IMG/VR virus record: IMGVR_UViG_3300042090_000261
Span: 1 to 28,073 of that record
Direction: 5' to 3' (one strand)
DNA length: 28,073 nucleotides
Origin: a virus
A program made the position numbers and the translations under genes. The notes beneath the pieces are model-generated. The model was given only the letters and a program-made list of their open reading frames with translations. It did no database searches and had not been told where the DNA came from. Below, piece after piece: positions 8,023 through 27,592 of this stretch. Positions within the stretch are counted from its first letter, which is position 1; every line of letters begins with the position of its first letter.

Positions 8023-8931
8023 ATGGGTGGCGGAACATTCGATCCTGGCAAGTATCGTGCGTATACCAGCACGACGGTCGGCAAAACGACCGAAGAAGTA
8101 TTCACGGCGCGCAGCATCAAGGCGGCGCTCAATCCGAAAGGCGTCAAAGTCCGCGAGTCTCGCGATAGCGCCGACAATCCGAAGTCCACGCCGATCATCG
8201 TAGCGATTGACGAGACCGGCAGCATGGGAATGCTGGCCGATGTGATCGCGCGCAAGGGCTTGGGCGTGTTGTTTGAATCCATCATCGCGCGCAAGCCCGT
8301 CACCGATCCGCATGTCATGTTCATGGCCTTCGGAGATGTGGAGTGCGATCACGCGCCATTGCAAGTATCTCAATTCGAAGCGGATAACCGCATTGTTGAG
8401 CAATTGAGTGAAATCTATTTGGAAGGCAACGGCGGCGGCAACGGTCATGAGAGCTACGAGTTGCCGTGGTACTTCGCGGCCTTTCACACGGTGCACGATT
8501 CTCTGATCAAGCGCGGCAAGCGCGGATATTTGTTCACGGTCGGAGATGAGCCAATCGGACCCGGACTACGCAAGGATGCATTGGTCAAGTTTTTGGACGA
8601 CGGTGCCGAACGGGACTTTTCAACTGCCGAATGTCTTGAGGCCGCGCAGCGAATGTACGACTGCTATCACGTGGTCATCAAGGAAGGCAATCACGCGCGT
8701 GGTGATTTGTCTGGAGTCTTGAAGACCTGGCGGCCGCTATTGGGCCAGCATGTGATTCAACTGGATGATCACACGAAACTAGCCGAGACCATCGTATCCG
8801 CTATTGAGGTGGCGGAAGGGCGCGACGCATCAACGTCAACCGCCGGATGGGGAGCATCGGCGTCTGTGGTGCTTGAGGCAGTCAAGAATCTGCCAAAAGG
8901 TGCACCGCCTAAGATGTTGGGCGCTCCGTGA
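8023..8931 (+). CDS. VWA (von Willebrand factor A)-like protein
   Basis: A 302-residue protein with GGAGG about 7 nt before ATG 8023. Residues 58-66 (IVAIDETGSMG) form a MIDAS-type metal motif, D63-x-T-x-S, at the end of a hydrophobic strand, as in VWA domains. A second strand (HVMFMAFGDVECD) and a later one (RGYLFTVGDEP) fit the Rossmann-like VWA fold. The N-terminus is Gly-rich and may be disordered. VWA domains bind protein partners through the metal. A second VWA domain occurs in the Ro60 homologue at 16338, so a link between them is possible but unproven. It overlaps the PurZ-like gene by 4 bp, implying co-translation. Confidence 0.7.
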   Translation: MGGGTFDPGKYRAYTSTTVGKTTEEVFTARSIKAALNPKGVKVRESRDSADNPKSTPIIVAIDETGSMGMLADVIARKGLGVLFESIIARKPVTDPHVMFMAFGDVECDHAPLQVSQFEADNRIVEQLSEIYLEGNGGGNGHESYELPWYFAAFHTVHDSLIKRGKRGYLFTVGDEPIGPGLRKDALVKFLDDGAERDFSTAECLEAAQRMYDCYHVVIKEGNHARGDLSGVLKTWRPLLGQHVIQLDDHTKLAETIVSAIEVAEGRDASTSTAGWGASASVVLEAVKNLPKGAPPKMLGAP

Positions 8932-9989
8932 AAGCGCGCGCCGTCATTGGGGCGAACTTCGGCGACGAAGGCAAGGGCCTGCTCGTTGACTACCTGTGCA
9001 AGACGGGTGGCGATGTCGTGGTTCGTTTCAATGGCGGCGCGCAAGCGGGGCATACGGTTGTGACGCCAGAAGGTTTGCGGCACGTATTCCATCACTTCGG
9101 CAGTGGCACTCTGTACGGAGTGCCGACGTTCTTATCTCAGTTTTTTATCTGCAATCCGATCATATATTTCCGTGAGTTGATGGAATTAGACGCGATGGGC
9201 GTCACGGCGGATGTGTTCGCGCATCCCGATTGTTTGGTGTCAACGTTCGCCGACATGATCATCAATCAACGCAAGGAATTGAAGCGTGGCGACAAGGCGC
9301 ACGGCAGTTGCGGTATCGGCATCCACGAGACGATTCAGCGTTCCGCAATCAGCGAACTTAAGATCACGATGAGCGACCTGTGGAATCGGTCAACGACGCT
9401 GCCATCCAAGATGGCAGAGATTTGCGACCGATACGCAAAGTTCCGAACTGGCACGCCGATCAATGAACCTGGCATGATTGAAATGTTCCTGAAAGAATGC
9501 GAGGCATTCGCGAATGCGATCCATCCGGCTGGCATTGGGCAATGCAAAGACCCGATTTTTGAGGGCGCGCAAGGGCTCTTGCTTGATCAGGACCGCATTG
9601 AGTACCATCCGCATGTCACGCATTCCAATACTGGAATGAAGAATGTGCGCACGCTATGCGCGCAAGCGGGGATTACGGATGTGGAAACGTACTACGTGTC
9701 GCGAACTTACTTGACGCGTCATGGCGCGGGTCCGCTGCCTGGAGAGAATCCGGGGCTCTCGTATCACGACGATACGAACGTAGGTCATCCGTGGCAGGGG
9801 TTTCTGCGATTCGCGGCACTGGACGATGGTCTGCGCATCCGCTGCGCAGCGGATGCGGGCGGCGAATACAAACTCGTTCTGACGCACTGTGATCAGCGCG
9901 AACCGACGCAACTGGCCGATCTGTACAGTTACGGGCCGACGCGCGCGAATGTGCGTGGCTGGAAAGAACGCGCCAAGGCTTTCAACTGA
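8928..9989 (+). CDS. purZ: Adenylosuccinate synthetase family enzyme, PurZ/PurZ0-like
   Basis: A 353-residue protein starting at GTG 8928 inside the previous stop codon. It has the PurA-family P-loop GANFGDEGKG (D13, E14, G15, K16), GGAQAGHTVV with the catalytic-type H42, EGAQGLLLDQD, HPHVTHSNTGMKN, and a THCD motif near the C-terminus where PurA has the base-reading (N/T)KxD. At 353 residues it is shorter than bacterial PurA (about 430) and close to phage PurZ and archaeal PurA. PurZ joins Asp to dGMP on the way to 2-aminoadenine (Z) for phage DNA; PurA uses IMP to make AMP precursor. Asp is kept at position 13, where PurZ of Z-phages is reported to have Ser, so the substrate is open: PurZ0-like, PurZ-like or a short PurA. 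DatZ, MazZ and DpoZ are not in this window. Confidence 0.8.
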   Translation: MKARAVIGANFGDEGKGLLVDYLCKTGGDVVVRFNGGAQAGHTVVTPEGLRHVFHHFGSGTLYGVPTFLSQFFICNPIIYFRELMELDAMGVTADVFAHPDCLVSTFADMIINQRKELKRGDKAHGSCGIGIHETIQRSAISELKITMSDLWNRSTTLPSKMAEICDRYAKFRTGTPINEPGMIEMFLKECEAFANAIHPAGIGQCKDPIFEGAQGLLLDQDRIEYHPHVTHSNTGMKNVRTLCAQAGITDVETYYVSRTYLTRHGAGPLPGENPGLSYHDDTNVGHPWQGFLRFAALDDGLRIRCAADAGGEYKLVLTHCDQREPTQLADLYSYGPTRANVRGWKERAKAFN

Positions 9990-12655: not shown

Positions 12656-13816
12656 GTGAATGATCCGCTGATGCCGCTCTCGTTCACGCGTACTGTGCGT
12701 CTGAAAATCCGCAGGGAATCGTATCCGTGGCTCAATGGAGCGGCGGTTGAAATCAATCAGGTGTTCAATTACGTGAACCAAGTGAGCTATGACACACGTC
12801 GGCGCACCGACCTCAAATCCAAGTGGCTCTCGGGCTTTGACCTGTGCAACCTGACTTCGGGCGCGACGCAGTATTTTGACCGCATCGGCGCGGACACGAT
12901 TCAATCGGTGTGCATGCACTACGCTCAAAAGCGCGCAGCCGCGAAGCGTCTGAAGCTGCGCTGGCGCGTGAGCCATGGTGCGCGTCGCGCGCTCGGCTGG
13001 ATACCGTTCAAGGCGGCGAGCTTGAAACGACGTGGCAATGCGCTGCGCTTTTGCGGCAAGATCTTCCGGGTATTCAATCGGGAATCCCTGACCGATGTGA
13101 AATGGCGCGATGGATGCTTCGCGCAGGATGCCGTGGGCGACTGGTGGCTGTGTCTGCCGGTCATCGTGACGGTGGAGCAAACCATCGCACCCTTGGAATC
13201 GGTCGGCATTGATCTTGGACTCAAGACCATCGCGACCACGAGCGACGGCGAGAAGCTGGAGGCGGGTCGTTGGACGCAAGGTAACGCGGATAAGCTGGCG
13301 ATGGCGCAGCGCCGTGGCCACAAGCGCCAGGCGAAGCGGATTCACCGCAAGGCCGCGAACCAACGCAAGGACGCGCTGCATAAGTTTTCGAGAATGATTG
13401 TTGATCGGTATCAGAACATCGTCGTCGGCGACGTGAGCAGCACCAAACTGGTCAAGACACGGATGGCAAAGTCCGTGCTTGATTCGGGTTGGTGGATGCT
13501 CAAAACGCAGTTGCAGTACAAGGGCCAGCAGGCCGGCAGAAGCGTTTCAGTCGTCAGCGAGAGTTACTCAACGCGAGCATGCAGCGGCTGTGGGTCCCTC
13601 ACGGGGCCTTCAGGTCCGGCCATGCTCGTTGTAAGGCACTGGGTATGCAGCGAGTGTGGAGACACTCACGATCGGGACGTTAACGCGGCCCGTAACATCC
13701 TTGCCGGGTCCAGGTGTCGGACCCCCGTGCGCGGGAACGAGTCTTCACCTCACGCAGTCGCGTTAACATCTCGCCGTCGCGAGACAGGTAAAAGACTGCG
13801 CGCGGTGGCGACATGA
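12656..13816 (+). CDS. TnpB-like (OrfB/Cas12-related) protein with altered RuvC triad
   Basis: A 386-residue protein from GTG 12656, after a long purine-rich RBS (GAGGGAGGGAG, 9 nt upstream); ATG 12671 is the alternative. It has the TnpB layout: RuvC-I GIDLGLKT with D186, RuvC-II IVVGDVSS with G258-D259, a four-Cys zinc finger (CSGC...CSEC), and RuvC-III HDRDVNAARN with D341. TnpB nucleases have Glu where G258 is; the spacing from 258 to 341 (83) equals that in ISDra2 TnpB (E278 to D361). So the protein may be nuclease-dead or use a different residue. There is no TnpA next to it and no obvious IS ends. TnpB binds an omega RNA from its own 3' end, and the 3' end here folds (see 13706-13800). 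It sits between the terminase genes. Confidence 0.8.
   Translation: MNDPLMPLSFTRTVRLKIRRESYPWLNGAAVEINQVFNYVNQVSYDTRRRTDLKSKWLSGFDLCNLTSGATQYFDRIGADTIQSVCMHYAQKRAAAKRLKLRWRVSHGARRALGWIPFKAASLKRRGNALRFCGKIFRVFNRESLTDVKWRDGCFAQDAVGDWWLCLPVIVTVEQTIAPLESVGIDLGLKTIATTSDGEKLEAGRWTQGNADKLAMAQRRGHKRQAKRIHRKAANQRKDALHKFSRMIVDRYQNIVVGDVSSTKLVKTRMAKSVLDSGWWMLKTQLQYKGQQAGRSVSVVSESYSTRACSGCGSLTGPSGPAMLVVRHWVCSECGDTHDRDVNAARNILAGSRCRTPVRGNESSPHAVALTSRRRETGKRLRAVAT
13706..13800 (+). ncRNA. Candidate omega-RNA-like structured RNA at the 3' end of the TnpB-like gene
   Basis: Within the last codons of the TnpB-like gene, three perfect short hairpins lie in a row: GGGTCC/GGACCC (13706-13724), CCCG/CGGG (13724-13735, sharing one base with the first) and CTCGC/GCGAG (13770-13783). 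The last is enclosed by CGCAGTC (13753-13759) pairing with GACTGCG (13794-13800). In TnpB systems the guide RNA scaffold overlaps the gene's 3' end, so the position is right. GC-rich coding DNA can fold by chance. Confidence 0.4.
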
Positions 13817-13900
13817 GCACCGGTCGCCAGCCGTCCGCCAAGCGATCAATGGACGCCTTCGATATTGGCGGATGCGGGTGTTTCGCTTAAGATTGGGCTG

Positions 13901-15940
13901 ATGCCTACGTTCGACCTCTCCGCGGTAGATCCGCAAGCGCAACTCGATGATCTGAATCGCGCTGATTACCAAGAATCACTCTACGAATTCTATAAAGCCG
14001 CTTGGCCATTGATTGACACCTCTCCGTGGATGGACGGATGGGCCATCGATGCGATTGCCGAACACTTGCAGGCGGTATGTGATGGAGAGATCAATCGATT
14101 GTGCATAAATGTGTCGCCGCGCACTGGAAAATCTAATTTGATCTCAGTCGCGTTTGATGCATGGGTATGGGCACAGCCGCACGCAGGACCCATCAGCGGA
14201 CCGGCAGTAAAATTCCTTCACGCCTCTTACGCGAACCAGCTTTCACTGCGCGACAACGTGAAGTGTCGTCGCCTCATTGAATCCTCGTGGTATCAGAAAC
14301 TGTGGGGCCATCGTTTTCAACTCACGACCGATCAGAACACGAAGTCGCGGTTTGCAAACGATCAAGGAGGCGAGCGGTTGATTACGTCGATTGAGGGCAC
14401 GAATACCGGTGAGGGAGCTATGTGTTTTGTGGCTGGCACGCTGGTCAACACGCCGCACGGAAATATACCGATTGAAAAATTGCTCGTGGGAAACACTGTG
14501 TATTCGAGCGGTGAAGGATTTGAAGCGATACGAGAATCACGAATCGTCGCAGTCATGGCACGTAAGCCATATCATGGACTCGTGACGATTAGCTGCGGTG
14601 GCAGCCATTCACTAACATGCACTGTTGACCATCGAATCTATACTGTCCGCGACGGGTATCAACGGGCCGATTCATTGAAAACTGGGACACGAGTACTGTG
14701 TTACTCGCATCTTGGGTTTACCTACGAAACAGAAGTAGAGTCGGTCAATTCCGTAACGGCAGATTATCGTCAACTCGTATACGACATTCAGGTAGAGCGC
14801 GACCACAACTTTTTCGCCGAAGGTGTGCTCGTCTCAAACTGCATAATAATCGACGACCCCAACGCGGTCGATGACGTAGACTCCGAAGCCACCATCCAGG
14901 CCGCCATTGACTGGTGGGACGGCGTGATGCCCACTCGCTTGAACAACCAAGAGACCGGCGCCTACATCGTCATTCAACAGCGTACATTCGAGAATGATTT
15001 GACCGGCCACATCATGGAACACGAGCGCGATGATTGGTGCTGGCTAATGATCCCGATGCGCTACGAGCCTGAGCGATCGTTCATGACGCCGATCGGCTGG
15101 AAAGATCCCCGCACCGTTGAAGGCGAACTCATGTGGCCCGAGCGGTTCAGCGAAAAGGCCGTCGCTCGCTTAGAGAAACGCCTCGGCAAATTCCGCGCCG
15201 CTGGCCAGCTCCAGCAGCGACCAGAACCCGCAGGCGGCGGCATCATCGAGCGCGCCTGGTGGCAACTCTGGGAATCCGAAACCTTCCCGCCGATGGATTT
15301 CGTACTCGCGACGTTGGACACGGCCTACACCGAGGATCAATTGAACGACCCTTCCGGCATGATCGTCTGGGGCGTCTTCTCCGAAACCACGAGCCAAGCG
15401 AATCATCTCTTAGACGCCTCGGGAAATCGCGTGTACCTAGATCGCACGATTTCCGAATCCCCGCCACGCGCGATGATGATGTACGCGTGGGACGATCACT
15501 TGAAACTGCATGACCTCGTGAAGCGCGTCGCGAAAACGTGCTTACAGTACAAGGTGGACTTGCTGCTGATCGAGAACAAGGCCTCGGGTATTTCGGTGAG
15601 TCAGGAAATCCGCCGGCTGATCAGTGCGGAGCGCTTCGGCGTGCAACTGTTTGATCCGAAATCGCAGGACAAGGTAGCGCGCCTGATATCGATTCAGCAC
15701 CTATTCCAAGAGGGCCTGATCTACGCGCCGTCCGAAAAGTACCCCTGGGTGGACAAGGTCATCACGCAAGTCGGCATGTTCCCGAAAGCGAAGCACGACG
15801 AGTACGTAGACTTGACCTCGATGGGCCTGCGGCACCTCCGCAATAACGGCCTAATCGCCCGCGCGCAAGAGCGCCTGGCAGAACTGGAGGGGTTGAAGGT
15901 GTTTCGGGGCAATCAGGATCAGCCGCTGTATCCGGTGTGA
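13901..15940 (+). CDS. terL: Terminase large subunit (TerL), interrupted by a mini-intein
   Basis: A 679-residue precursor from ATG 13901; removal of the intein (residues 175-313) leaves 540 residues, a normal TerL size. ATPase: Walker A variant VSPRTGKS (residues about 71-78), and Walker B CIIIDDP directly after the intein (from 314). Nuclease: ATLDTAYTED with D473, LLLIENKASG with E558, and AKHDEYVDL near 631-639, the RNase H-like metal residues of TerL. TerL pumps DNA into the prohead and cuts the concatemer. A TTG at 13865 is an alternative start but lacks support. The RBS is weak. The gene follows the TnpB-like gene and ends 2 bp before a strong promoter. Confidence 0.92.
   Translation: MPTFDLSAVDPQAQLDDLNRADYQESLYEFYKAAWPLIDTSPWMDGWAIDAIAEHLQAVCDGEINRLCINVSPRTGKSNLISVAFDAWVWAQPHAGPISGPAVKFLHASYANQLSLRDNVKCRRLIESSWYQKLWGHRFQLTTDQNTKSRFANDQGGERLITSIEGTNTGEGAMCFVAGTLVNTPHGNIPIEKLLVGNTVYSSGEGFEAIRESRIVAVMARKPYHGLVTISCGGSHSLTCTVDHRIYTVRDGYQRADSLKTGTRVLCYSHLGFTYETEVESVNSVTADYRQLVYDIQVERDHNFFAEGVLVSNCIIIDDPNAVDDVDSEATIQAAIDWWDGVMPTRLNNQETGAYIVIQQRTFENDLTGHIMEHERDDWCWLMIPMRYEPERSFMTPIGWKDPRTVEGELMWPERFSEKAVARLEKRLGKFRAAGQLQQRPEPAGGGIIERAWWQLWESETFPPMDFVLATLDTAYTEDQLNDPSGMIVWGVFSETTSQANHLLDASGNRVYLDRTISESPPRAMMMYAWDDHLKLHDLVKRVAKTCLQYKVDLLLIENKASGISVSQEIRRLISAERFGVQLFDPKSQDKVARLISIQHLFQEGLIYAPSEKYPWVDKVITQVGMFPKAKHDEYVDLTSMGLRHLRNNGLIARAQERLAELEGLKVFRGNQDQPLYPV
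14423..14839 (+). other. Mini-intein (139 aa, no homing endonuclease) in TerL
   Basis: The intein starts at C175 (codon 14423-14425) with the block A pattern CFVAGTLVNTPHGNIPIEKL. Block B is LTCTVDHR (T-x-x-H). Blocks F and G are YDIQVERDHNFFAEGVLVSN, ending at Asn (14837-14839) followed by Cys+1 (14840-14842). All core splicing residues are present; the penultimate residue is Ser rather than the usual His. At 139 residues there is no room for a homing endonuclease. Insertion lies just before Walker B, a conserved and essential point. Confidence 0.9.
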
Positions 15941-15941
15941 C

Positions 15942-15970
15942 TTGACAGCCGCGACCAATGGTCGTATAAC
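15942..15970 (+). promoter_or_regulatory. Near-consensus sigma70 promoter for the RNA/Ro locus
   Basis: TTGACA (15942-15947) and TATAAC (15965-15970) are separated by exactly 17 bp. Transcription would start near 15977, three bases before the first tRNA-like unit. It is among the two best promoters in the window, as expected for an abundant small RNA. Confidence 0.8.
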
Positions 15971-15979
15971 GTCATCCCA

Positions 15980-16047
15980 AGCGGTGGTGCAGATTTCAGT
16001 TACTCCATTCTAAGGCGTGGGTCGCAGGTTCAAATCCTGTCACCGTG
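15980..16047 (+). ncRNA. tRNA-like RNA unit 1 (Y-RNA-like candidate)
   Basis: AGCGGTG (15980-15986) pairs through CGGTG with CACCG (16041-16045), like an acceptor stem. An anticodon-like arm has loop ATTCTAA, with U33 and a UCU triplet, on the stem ACTCC/GGCGT with one mismatch. A 5-nt variable region and a full T-arm, GCAGG-TTCAAAT-CCTGT (16024-16040), follow. The D-arm is reduced to about 15 nt and no CCA is encoded, so this is a tRNA mimic rather than a clear tRNA. Bacterial Y RNAs that bind Ro proteins carry tRNA-like modules, and the Ro gene follows. Confidence 0.6.
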
Positions 16048-16051
16048 TAAC

Positions 16052-16277
16052 AGCGGTGTAGCTCAGTCTGGTAGAGCAACGAAATACTGAAGTCGAATAT
16101 TCCCCGCGTAGATTTGCGTGGCGCACAGTTCGGTTACTTCTGACCAAAACTCAGACGATGCGAGTTCGACTCTCGCTGAAAAGGTGTGGTACCTAGTTCG
16201 TTACCGGATTGGCTTGTTCCCGCATTGAGGTTTGATTTGGGTGCTGAAGATTACGGTTACTTCTGCGTTTAGAAACC
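16052..16277 (+). ncRNA. Further tRNA-like elements before the Ro gene
   Basis: AGCGGTG recurs at 16052-16058, exactly 72 nt after unit 1, followed by TA and a perfect D-arm, GCTC-AGTCTGGTA-GAGC (16061-16077). A hairpin near 16104-16121 follows. An anticodon-like arm TCTGA-CCAAAAC-TCAGA (16139-16155) and a perfect T-arm GCGAG-TTCGACT-CTCGC (16160-16176) come next. A third element near 16229-16277 has GGTTT/AAACC and GAAG/CTTC stems. The 12-mer CGGTTACTTCTG occurs at 16131 and 16254, with a related CAGTTACTCC at 15997. These could form one long RNA or several small ones. Nothing else is seen between 16278 and 16326. Confidence 0.5.
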
Positions 16278-16337
16278 ATACCGTATTCGCTTGTTGCCCC
16301 ACTGATTGTTGTTGCCCTTAACTCATGAGGTGCTGTG

Positions 16338-17651
16338 ATGAAAACGAACTTGAAGCGCGCTCCCGGCCCGGTCACGCACGAAGGTGCTCCGGCCATTCCA
16401 TCCAATCCCTACACCGAACTGCGGCGCGCGGTACTCGCGTGCCTCTTGTGGGAGAACCAGTTCTACGAATCCGGCGAAGATATCGCCAAGCGCATCGGTG
16501 CGCTGGTCAAGCAAGTGCCGCAAGAGAAGGTCGCGCAACTCGCCATTGATGCGCGCACGAAATTCAAACTGCGTCACGCGCCGCTGTTGCTGGTGCGTGA
16601 GATGGCGCGCGGCAAAGGCAACATTATCGGTCGCACGCTCTCGGAAGTGATCCAGCGCGCGGACGAGTTGTCAGAGTTCGTCGCGATTTACTGGAAAGAC
16701 AAGCGTCAGCCGCTATCCAAGCAAGTCAAGGTCGGACTTGCGCACGCCTTCCAGAAGTTCAACGCCTACGCATTAGGCAAGTACAAAGGAGATGACAAGG
16801 CCGTCAAACTGCGTGATGTCCTATTCCTGTGCCACGCGAAACCGAAGGACGAAGCCCAAGCCGCTACTTGGAAAAAGCTCATTGACGGTACCCTTGAAGC
16901 GCCTGATACGTGGGAAGTGGCATTGTCGGCAGGCGCGGACAAGAAAGAAACGTTTGAGCGATTGATCCGCGAGAACAAGTTGGGCTACTTGGCACTCCTT
17001 CGCAACCTTCGCAAGATGCTGGAAGTCGGCTGCGATGAGACAATGATCCGCGCGGCGATCTCCGCAGGCGCGCACGGATCAAAGGCGTTACCGTTTCGCT
17101 TCATTGCGGCGGCCCGTGCGGCTCCGCGTTTTGAGCCGCAGTTGGACGCGGCCATGCAGATTGCGGTCGCGGAAATGCCGAAACTCACTGGGACGACTGC
17201 GGTGCTGGTGGACGTATCGGGTTCCATGGATGCGGCGCTGTCGGCCAAGTCGGACTTGAAGCGTATGGACGCCGCGTGCGGCCTTGCGATCATGGCACGC
17301 GAATTGTGCGAGGACTGCCGCGTGTTCGCGTTTTCTAACGCCATCGCAGAAATACCGGCGCGGCGCGGTATGGGATTGGCCGATGCGATCATCAAATCAA
17401 TGCCGCATCAGGGAACGAATTTAGGCGCGGCTGTGGCGTGGATCAACGGCAACGTCAAATATGATCGGCTGATTGTCGTCACCGACGAACAGAGTCATGA
17501 TGCGGTGGGCGCTCCGAAGGGACGCGGAATAATGGTCAATGTCGCGTCCGCCAAAAACGGCGTAGGCTATGGCCCATGGACCCGTTTGGACGGGTTCTCG
17601 GAGGCCATCTTGACGTACATTCAGGAGTCAGATGTTGCCGTCGAAGGCTGA
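16338..17651 (+). CDS. rsr: Ro60 homologue (TROVE and VWA domains)
   Basis: A 437-residue protein from ATG 16338 (GAGG 7 nt upstream; a GTG just before is also in frame). Residues about 1-275 are an all-helical repeat domain with LACLLWENQFYESGEDIAKRI and LRHAPLLLVREMARG, typical of TROVE domains (Telomerase, Ro, Vault). Residues about 285-437 are a VWA domain with a canonical MIDAS, VDVSGSMD (D292), plus VVTDEQSHD. Ro60/Rsr rings bind Y RNAs on the outside and misfolded RNA ends in the centre, and can direct RNA to PNPase. Upstream lie tRNA-like RNA elements and a strong promoter, so the gene and its RNA partner appear as one unit. A small HTH gene overlaps its 3' end by 20 bases. Confidence 0.88.
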   Translation: MKTNLKRAPGPVTHEGAPAIPSNPYTELRRAVLACLLWENQFYESGEDIAKRIGALVKQVPQEKVAQLAIDARTKFKLRHAPLLLVREMARGKGNIIGRTLSEVIQRADELSEFVAIYWKDKRQPLSKQVKVGLAHAFQKFNAYALGKYKGDDKAVKLRDVLFLCHAKPKDEAQAATWKKLIDGTLEAPDTWEVALSAGADKKETFERLIRENKLGYLALLRNLRKMLEVGCDETMIRAAISAGAHGSKALPFRFIAAARAAPRFEPQLDAAMQIAVAEMPKLTGTTAVLVDVSGSMDAALSAKSDLKRMDAACGLAIMARELCEDCRVFAFSNAIAEIPARRGMGLADAIIKSMPHQGTNLGAAVAWINGNVKYDRLIVVTDEQSHDAVGAPKGRGIMVNVASAKNGVGYGPWTRLDGFSEAILTYIQESDVAVEG

Positions 17652-17790
17652 TTTCAAATCTTGGTTGAGACGCAATAGGTACGGGCCGGCTGATGCGGCC
17701 CGTCACCTCAAGGTCAACGTCCGCACCGTCCAGCGCTGGCTCAAAGGGGATCGCCGAATCCCGAACTGGCTGGAGTTACTAATCCGCTAA
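17632..17790 (+). CDS. Small helix-turn-helix protein
   Basis: A 52-residue protein from ATG 17632, with AGGAG (17622-17626) 5 nt upstream. It has a helix-turn-helix with GPADAARHLKVNVRTVQRWL, then KGDRRIPNWLELL, resembling the Cro/C1 or phage excisionase-like fold. It overlaps the Ro60 gene by 20 bases and so is made from the same message. It may regulate the Ro/RNA promoter or be a general phage regulator. Confidence 0.65.
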   Translation: MLPSKADFKSWLRRNRYGPADAARHLKVNVRTVQRWLKGDRRIPNWLELLIR

Positions 17791-26803: not shown

Positions 26804-26814
26804 AACGTGAATGC

Positions 26815-26842
26815 TTGCTTAAAGACGGATATTGCGTATAAT
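26815..26842 (+). promoter_or_regulatory. Promoter with consensus -10 for the endonuclease VII-type gene
   Basis: A perfect TATAAT (26837-26842) with -35 TTGCTT (26815-26820) at 16 bp spacing. It lies between the capsid terminator and ATG 26870. Homing endonucleases often carry their own promoters. Confidence 0.65.
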
Positions 26843-26869
26843 GGCATCTCCCAACAAGGAGATGAATCC

Positions 26870-27592
26870 ATGAACGTGAAAAAGCCGACTCTGACGTTTG
26901 AGCAGATCAACGAATTGATCGCCTATGACGGGGCGACTGGCGTGTTTACGTGGAAAAAGACGGCATCGCGTCGTCACAAGGTCGGCGAGGAAATCGGTGA
27001 GTTCAAGTCCAGAGTGGACAAGTACGGCGTGGCGCGCCGCTACAAGTACATCGGCGTTCTGTATCACCAGACCCCTGCGACCCGCATTGCGTGGTTGCTG
27101 ACCTACGGCGAATGGCCGAAAGGCAATATCCTGTACAAAGATGGGAACACCGAGAACCTGAAGATTGACAATCTGAAGGAGGCGGATTTCCCGACGGTGA
27201 TCACCGTGAAGGGCAGCGTTCGACATTACAAAATGTCAGCCGAGGCCACGCGGCATTATGGCCTCAAGCGCTACTACGGGATGAGCGGCGAAACGTACAA
27301 CATGATGCTGGCCGCGCAGGGCGGTGTATGCGCAATCTGCAAGGGTACCGAGACGTATATCGCTAAGGGATACAACGAGCCAAAAGCTCTGTCTGTTGAC
27401 CACAATCACGAAACCGGCGCGATCCGTGGGCTGTTGTGCTCAAACTGCAATTACATGATCGGGCATTGCCGGGAGAATCCCGACATTCTGTTGGATGGCG
27501 CGAAGTACCTACGCCTGCACAACGGCACGCCCCCGGCGAAGCCCAAACTTGAAATCGTGCGCACCGATGCGCCGACCGAGGATGCGAAATGA
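26870..27592 (+). CDS. Homing endonuclease: HNH-like N-part fused to endonuclease VII domain
   Basis: A 240-residue protein with AAGGAG 8 nt before ATG 26870. The N-terminal half (LIAYDGATGVFTWKK, then ATRIAWLLTYGEWPKGNILYKDG, ENLKIDNLKEAD) follows the phage HNH pattern, but the expected His in the DHINGD position is replaced (YKDGNTENL). The C-terminal half is an endonuclease VII domain: CAICKGTE, then LSVDHNHETGAIRGLLCSNCNYMIGHCRENPD, with Cys pairs for zinc and the D-H-N-H active motif. It may act as a homing enzyme. It sits between capsid genes and has its own promoter. Confidence 0.82.
   Translation: MNVKKPTLTFEQINELIAYDGATGVFTWKKTASRRHKVGEEIGEFKSRVDKYGVARRYKYIGVLYHQTPATRIAWLLTYGEWPKGNILYKDGNTENLKIDNLKEADFPTVITVKGSVRHYKMSAEATRHYGLKRYYGMSGETYNMMLAAQGGVCAICKGTETYIAKGYNEPKALSVDHNHETGAIRGLLCSNCNYMIGHCRENPDILLDGAKYLRLHNGTPPAKPKLEIVRTDAPTEDAK

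What the first reader, a model, noticed from the sequence alone, without database searches (positions are those of the whole stretch)
15942..17790. Self-contained phage Ro60 locus: strong promoter, tandem tRNA-like RNAs, TROVE-VWA protein, HTH gene
A near-consensus promoter (TTGACA-N17-TATAAC) starts transcription three bases before a stretch of tRNA-like modules (AGCGGTG starts 72 nt apart, a D-arm, two T-arms, and a repeated CGGTTACTTCTG). The Ro60 homologue follows, then a coupled HTH gene. In bacteria Ro proteins partner with Y RNAs that carry tRNA mimics (established). Here both parts seem to be carried by a phage between terminase and portal. It could protect, sort or degrade RNA during infection, or counter tRNA-cleaving defences. 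The RNA's extent, and whether it is one or several molecules, is inferred.
Basis: partly seen in the sequence, partly recalled or inferred. Interest (0 to 1): 0.85.

Follow-up and report, generated by a model that had tools for sequence, protein, structure and literature searches.

The report
Phage Ro60 with tRNA-mimic Y RNAs
A bacterial virus carries a portable gene block that makes a ring-shaped RNA-binding protein (Ro60) and three tandem small RNAs built to grip it, one of which mimics a whole tRNA cut open at a new place and still shows an anticodon loop; the protein-RNA pair is a known kind, but the anticodon-bearing, swappable tRNA mimic looks new.

Summary
A near-consensus promoter (15942-15970) ends six bases before three head-to-tail Y RNAs (15977-16112, 16113-16229, 16234-16306). 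A Ro60 gene (16338-17651) and an overlapping HTH gene (17632-17790) follow. Y1 matches Rfam YrlA. A model built from related loci finds 229 such RNAs in 93 of 99 viral loci: 222 lie upstream of Ro, in arrays of 1-8, with strong covariation. Sibling phages lack the cassette between terminase and portal, so it is a mobile extra.

Phage Ro60 and Y RNAs are known from the literature, so this is a member of a known kind. What goes beyond Rfam's YrlA model: about half of the tRNA-bearing Y RNAs, including this one, keep an anticodon arm with a 7-base loop, U33 and purine 37. They are whole tRNAs, circularly permuted: old ends sealed by a small loop, break between D and anticodon arms. Among near-identical relatives the Ro-binding stem stays fixed while the tRNA module, anticodon included, is swapped or lost. 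Chromosomal Bradyrhizobium loci show the same.

Most likely it is a Ro-Y ribonucleoprotein whose exchangeable tRNA mimic docks tRNA-binding proteins. An anticodon-nuclease decoy is the main rival. No expression or binding was tested.

The parts
15942..15970 (+). promoter TTGACA-N17-TATAAC; expected start at about 15977, the 5' end of Y1
   Evidence: only match in window, 0.01 expected; promoter-like sites enriched at the same place in relatives
15977..16112 (+). Y1: long Y RNA, Ro-binding stem plus circularly permuted tRNA-like domain
   Evidence: YrlA 44.9 bits; model R1 100 bits; fold z-score -2.7
16002..16018 (+). Y1 anticodon arm: ACTCC-ATTCTAA-GGCGT, anticodon UCU (Arg) at 16009-16011, U33 and A37 present, 4 of 5 pairs
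   Evidence: fixed-offset reading from the T arm; geometry control
16024..16040 (+). Y1 T arm GCAGG-TTCAAAT-CCTGT, preceded by the 5-base variable loop GGGTC
   Evidence: sequence; YrlA alignment
16041..16058 (+). Y1 acceptor stem (CACCG/CGGTG) closed by a loop: no free ends, no CCA
   Evidence: sequence; acceptor pairs covary in relatives
16059..16077 (+). Y1 U8-A9 and D arm (TAGCTCAGTCTGGTAGAGC)
   Evidence: YrlA alignment
16113..16229 (+). Y2: Ro-binding stem, 5-bp hairpin with 7-base loop lacking U33, and T arm; a 36-base piece with these is absent in near-identical L002
   Evidence: R1 45.5 bits; alignment to L002
16234..16306 (+). Y3: short Y RNA, Ro-binding stem and hairpin, no tRNA part
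   Evidence: R1 40.9 bits; fold
16338..17651 (+). Ro60/Rsr homologue, 437 aa, TROVE ring plus vWA with MIDAS motif
17632..17790 (+). 52-aa helix-turn-helix protein, overlaps the Ro 3' end
   Evidence: overlap recurs in L002, L021, L022, L023

Best explanation
A portable phage cassette that makes a Ro ribonucleoprotein. One promoter transcribes three tandem Y RNAs and then, on the same strand, Ro and a small DNA-binding protein. Each Y RNA holds the Ro ring through its conserved basal and inner stems. The far end is an exchangeable effector module. In Y1 it is a complete tRNA mimic, circularly permuted (old ends sealed by a loop, new ends between D and anticodon arm), so it cannot be charged and should only be bound by proteins that recognise tRNA shape. 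By analogy with Deinococcus, Ro with Y RNA would tether such a partner (PNPase or another tRNA-binding enzyme) and feed it structured or damaged RNA during infection. Shown by computation: promoter sequence, three Y RNAs, structure and covariation, Ro fold, module exchange, mobility. Inferred: transcription, RNP formation and partner. Not known: effect on infection.
For: R1 finds 229 Y RNAs in 93 viral Ro loci, 222 upstream of Ro, 1-8 copies, median gap 9.5 nt. Covariation score 0.632 against 0.170 shuffled and at most 0.123 slid; both Ro-binding helices (15 pairs) have a two-sided change at every pair. Ro fold: best matches are Ro60 of Thermus phage phiLo, Rsr and vertebrate Ro60. Ro-binding stem constant while the distal module changes: Xanthomonas phages, window vs L002, Bradyrhizobium. 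About 60 sibling contigs that reach across the terminase-portal interval show no Ro there, while one relative carries the cassette before terminase. Literature: Rsr binds the lower stem and Y RNA tethers PNPase (PMC4726728, PMC8394870).
Against: No expression, binding or knock-out data. PNPase as partner is shown only in Deinococcus. Single-sequence folding of the full leader is not better than shuffles (z -0.98) and Y2 alone is not either (z 0.04). Six of 99 loci give no Y RNA hit. The phage Ro is only 14-24% identical to the solved Ro proteins.
Confidence: 0.6

Rival explanations
1. Decoy: the anticodon-bearing Y RNA, held on Ro, is bait for host anticodon nucleases or other tRNA-targeting defences. 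It occupies or inhibits them and spares real tRNAs; swapping of anticodons reflects an arms race.
For: Intact anticodon loops with U33 in 50 of 53 and purine 37 in 52 of 53; many anticodons; anticodon changed between near-identical relatives. Many phage Ro genes lie among tRNA genes. YrlA as competitive inhibitor of an anticodon nuclease was proposed by Hughes et al. (PMC7790460).
Against: The anticodon varies about as much as other free loop bases, so plain lack of constraint explains it. Roughly half of the Y RNAs with a T arm and all short ones lack a tRNA-like anticodon loop. Bacterial chromosomes carry the same RNAs. In Salmonella YrlA was not cut by the nuclease.
Confidence: 0.2
2. Quality control for the phage: Ro with Y RNA gates and refolds or clears defective tRNA, rRNA or phage RNAs (RNA chaperone or repair platform) without a defence role.
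For: Known Ro60 functions; TROVE discussed with RNA repair in jumbo phages (PMC7824862); Ro genes next to tRNA clusters and tmRNA in several phages.
Against: No RtcB, ligase or other RNA-repair family among the proteins searched against Pfam and PHROGs; many genes of this incomplete contig were not searched. This overlaps the best explanation and differs mainly in the partner.
Confidence: 0.15
3. Cryptic permuted tRNA genes: processing at the acceptor loop and joining at 26/27 would give working tRNAs with useful anticodons.
For: Rotated to tRNA order, ARAGORN of 53 as tRNAs, nearly all with the predicted anticodon. Permuted tRNA genes exist in algae and archaea (PMC3978253, PMC3218864).
Against: The acceptor is closed by short loops without CCA; the conserved Ro stem would be discarded; the anticodon is not conserved; ARAGORN also-40 of 53 after shuffling the anticodon arm.
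Confidence: 0.02
4. The RNAs act only in cis, as structured leader controlling Ro expression.
For: They lie between the promoter and Ro with no terminator-like site on the + strand found between.
Against: Arrays of up to 8 units, two-part stems typical of Ro binding, some arrays downstream of Ro (L016, L087).
Confidence: 0.03

Closest known systems
Bacterial Y RNA YrlA (Rfam RF02553) with Rsr, e.g. Salmonella rsr-yrlBA-rtcBA
   Same: Ro-binding stem, permuted T arm - closed acceptor - D arm, gene next to Ro, partner Y RNAs
   Different: Rfam's YrlA has no hairpin in front of the T arm; here a full anticodon arm with variable loop is present. Arrays of 1-8 RNAs lie upstream of Ro, and no RtcB/RtcA gene was seen beside Ro in this window.
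Phage Y RNAs reported in mycobacteriophages (Chen et al. 2014, cited in PMC12282133) and suspected in Listeria phage CKA15
   Same: phage-borne Ro with nearby Y RNAs
   Different: other phage groups; I could not read the 2014 paper, so whether anticodon arms were noted there is unknown
Ro60 of Thermus phage phiLo (PDB 9l5y)
   Same: phage Ro60, same fold; best structural match along with 9kop
   Different: 24% identity or less; no Y RNA hit in its locus
Deinococcus Rsr - Y RNA - PNPase complex (RYPER)
   Same: Ro ring and Y RNA tether architecture, by inference
   Different: PNPase binding not tested here

Membership tests
Ro60/Rsr (TROVE-vWA) proteins | TROVE domain plus Ro60-type vWA | tested here: met
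   PF05731 54.3 bits (cutoff 23) and PF25045 33.5 bits (cutoff 27.7)
Ro60/Rsr (TROVE-vWA) proteins | ring fold of Ro60 | tested here: met
   AF2 pLDDT 83; Foldseek full-length matches to 9l5y, 2nvo, 1yvr, TM (query) 0.66-0.75
Ro60/Rsr (TROVE-vWA) proteins | vWA metal site DxSxS, T, D | tested here: met
   D292, S294, S296, T360, D383 invariant in the 32-sequence alignment
Rsr equivalog (NCBIfam NF041674) | curated equivalog score 900 | tested here: not met
   24 bits: a relative in the Ro60 family, not the Rsr equivalog
Y RNA (YrlA type) | Rfam gathering score 69 | tested here: not met
   44.9 bits, E 7e-9; relatives 25-56 bits
Y RNA (YrlA type) | T arm - closed acceptor - D arm order | tested here: met
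   Y1
Y RNA (YrlA type) | conserved long stem of 5' and 3' ends next to Ro gene | tested here: met
   helices 1 and 2, 15 pairs, a two-sided change at every pair; 222 of 229 upstream of Ro
Y RNA (YrlA type) | bound by Ro in the cell | not testable with these tools
   needs pull-down
tRNA | standard tRNA gene | tested here: not met
   ARAGORN finds none in the window; Rfam tRNA 18.9 and 21.1 bits, below 29
RYPER | Y RNA tethers PNPase | not testable with these tools
   needs binding assay

The most novel reading that the evidence does not exclude
A widespread, so far unrecognised class of Y RNAs, in phages and bacteria, presents a complete circularly permuted tRNA with a live anticodon loop on the Ro ring. 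The module is swapped like a cassette under selection from tRNA-targeting enzymes, making Ro-Y particles changeable tRNA decoys or baits in phage-host conflict.
Probability: 0.2. Interest if true: 0.88.

Novelty: new variant of a known kind. Interest (0 to 1): 0.62.

Why it matters
Y RNAs are described as mimicking the T, D and acceptor arms of tRNA (PMC8394870), with the Ro stem in place of the anticodon arm in Rfam's model. Here many keep the anticodon arm too, which widens the list of possible partners to anticodon-reading enzymes and makes a decoy idea directly testable. The loci are easy to find: the model gives hundreds of Y RNAs, some in cultured phages (Xanthomonas, Caulobacter, Brevundimonas) and in Bradyrhizobium, so the function of phage Ro60, an open question, can be tested in laboratory strains. 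Several of these RNAs are at present annotated as ordinary tRNAs.

Tried and rejected
ARAGORN and Rfam at gathering threshold found nothing in the window, so a lower threshold and an own model were needed. ARAGORN on rotated sequences is a weak test: it also-40 of 53 with shuffled anticodon arms and 18 of 30 without one; I therefore rely on loop bases, geometry and covariation. Counting G-U pairs made two other loop geometries look as good; Watson-Crick inner pairs settle it, 20 at the tRNA geometry against at most 6 elsewhere. Hypervariable anticodon as proof of positive selection: rejected, other free loop bases vary nearly as much. Whole-leader folding energy is uninformative. No match of the contig to known phages. 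Key papers (Chen 2014, Sim and Wolin 2018, Sim 2020) are not held.

Full report
What is there. The stretch 15942-17790 holds, in order on the + strand: a promoter (TTGACA-N17-TATAAC, 15942-15970; 0.01 matches expected), three head-to-tail Y RNAs, a Ro60 gene and a small HTH gene that starts inside the end of the Ro gene. Rfam's YrlA matches 16016-16083 at 44.9 bits; ARAGORN and Rfam's own cut-offs see nothing.

Relatives. Ro relatives occur in 82 GenBank phage records, 321 viral contig stretches (80 kept) and 200 stretches of bacterial genomes (80 kept). The upstream RNAs align with clear covariation: 23 of 29 predicted pairs change on both sides. With the structure that I wrote down by hand from one row, the score is 0.632 against 0.170 in shuffles and at most 0.123 when slid. 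A covariance model, R1, built from 32 of them (window Y1 included, Y2 and Y3 not) finds in the window exactly three units. Over 99 viral loci it finds 229 full-length units with E below 1e-3 in 93 loci (this tally includes window Y2 from the unfiltered search). 222 of them are upstream of Ro and all are on the Ro strand, 1-8 per locus. They come long (about 135 nt, with tRNA-like domain) and short (about 70 nt, stem only).

The tRNA-like domain. Reading fixed distances upstream of the T arm, 53 of 88 T-arm-bearing units have at least 4 of 5 pairs around a 7-base loop. In these, base 33 is U in 50 and base 37 a purine in 52. Counting only inner Watson-Crick pairs, the tRNA geometry (5-base variable loop, 7-base loop) gives 20 cases and no other geometry more than 6. 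The segment of R1 that holds this arm and the T arm also hits annotated real tRNA genes (for example L020 1029-1067 inside a tRNA-Thr). So these Y RNAs are complete tRNAs in permuted order, closed at the acceptor. Window Y1 has anticodon UCU, like tRNA-Arg. Rfam's YrlA consensus has no such arm. Not all units have it: others lack a tRNA-like anticodon loop, and Y2 keeps a hairpin without U33.

Module exchange. Xanthomonas phages 10KY502B and Olaya share an almost identical Y RNA frame but differ in anticodon (UGU against GUU), T stem, acceptor stem and D loop. Contig L002 is 98.4% identical to the window over this leader but lacks a 36-base piece of Y2 holding the T arm. In 22 Bradyrhizobium chromosomal loci the orthologous RNA has a mean column identity of 91%, with GCA, AUC, GAU, GUG, CCC, CCA or UGA in the anticodon. 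The anticodon is the most variable triplet of all (1.58 bits against 0.20), base 33 never changes, and pair 31:39 switches C-G, A-U, U-A without a mismatch. Other free loop bases vary nearly as much, so this shows freedom, not necessarily selection for change.

Mobility. Sibling phages with the same terminase - small gene - portal order have no Ro cassette in that interval (about 60 contigs). The relative L021/L193 (one contig) carries its own Y RNAs, Ro and HTH before its terminase instead. The cassette is thus an inserted extra with its own promoter, of the sort called a moron. The HTH overlap recurs in four relatives; weaker, different HTH matches lie just after Ro in several more loci.

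Protein. AlphaFold2 from 32 relatives gives pLDDT 83. The best folds are Ro60 of Thermus phage phiLo, Deinococcus Rsr and vertebrate Ro60. The vWA metal-site residues are invariant.

How it likely works. By established knowledge Rsr binds the lower stem of the Y RNA and the other end docks an effector, PNPase in Deinococcus. Here the stem is constant and the effector end exchangeable, which fits that division. The partner and the benefit to the phage are inferred. The decoy idea remains open; a competitive-inhibitor role of YrlA was raised for Salmonella.

Known or new. Phage Ro60 and phage Y RNAs are known. I found no held paper that describes a Y RNA with an anticodon arm of its own, but the main Y RNA papers are not held, so novelty of that point is unproven. 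I file it as a new variant of a known kind.

Noticed in passing
window 13865-15940: Terminase large subunit carries an intein (about residues 190-325; Hint_2 and Intein_splicing hits); no sibling terminase compared aligns across it.
   Followed up: partly
window 8023-9989: A vWA-like protein (phrog_2971) and a PurA/PurZ-like adenylosuccinate synthetase (phrog_1211) overlap by 4 bases; the same pair lies close to Ro in L022, L096, L078 and L059. Possible modified-base (aminoadenine) phage.
   Followed up: partly
window 12656-13816: A TnpB/OrfB-type (Cas12f1-like TNB) gene with no TnpA noticed in the window.
   Followed up: no
L010 2795-2862, L011 2802-2876, L012 2128-2195, L020 2730-2804: GenBank tRNA-Thr, tRNA-Ser, tRNA-Gln and tRNA-Arg genes of these phages coincide with Y RNA model hits and are probably misannotated Y RNAs.
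   Followed up: partly
L015, L016, L020, L098, L103: Ro genes of Rhizobium, Microcystis, Streptomyces, crAss-like and Gordonia phages sit among tRNA genes, in one case with a tmRNA.
   Followed up: no
window 26807-27592: HNH plus endonuclease VII type gene just after the major head protein, probably a homing endonuclease.
   Followed up: no
L190 1766-1918: A close relative of the small HTH gene stands alone just before terminase without any Ro gene detected, so its role may be older than, or independent of, Ro.
   Followed up: no
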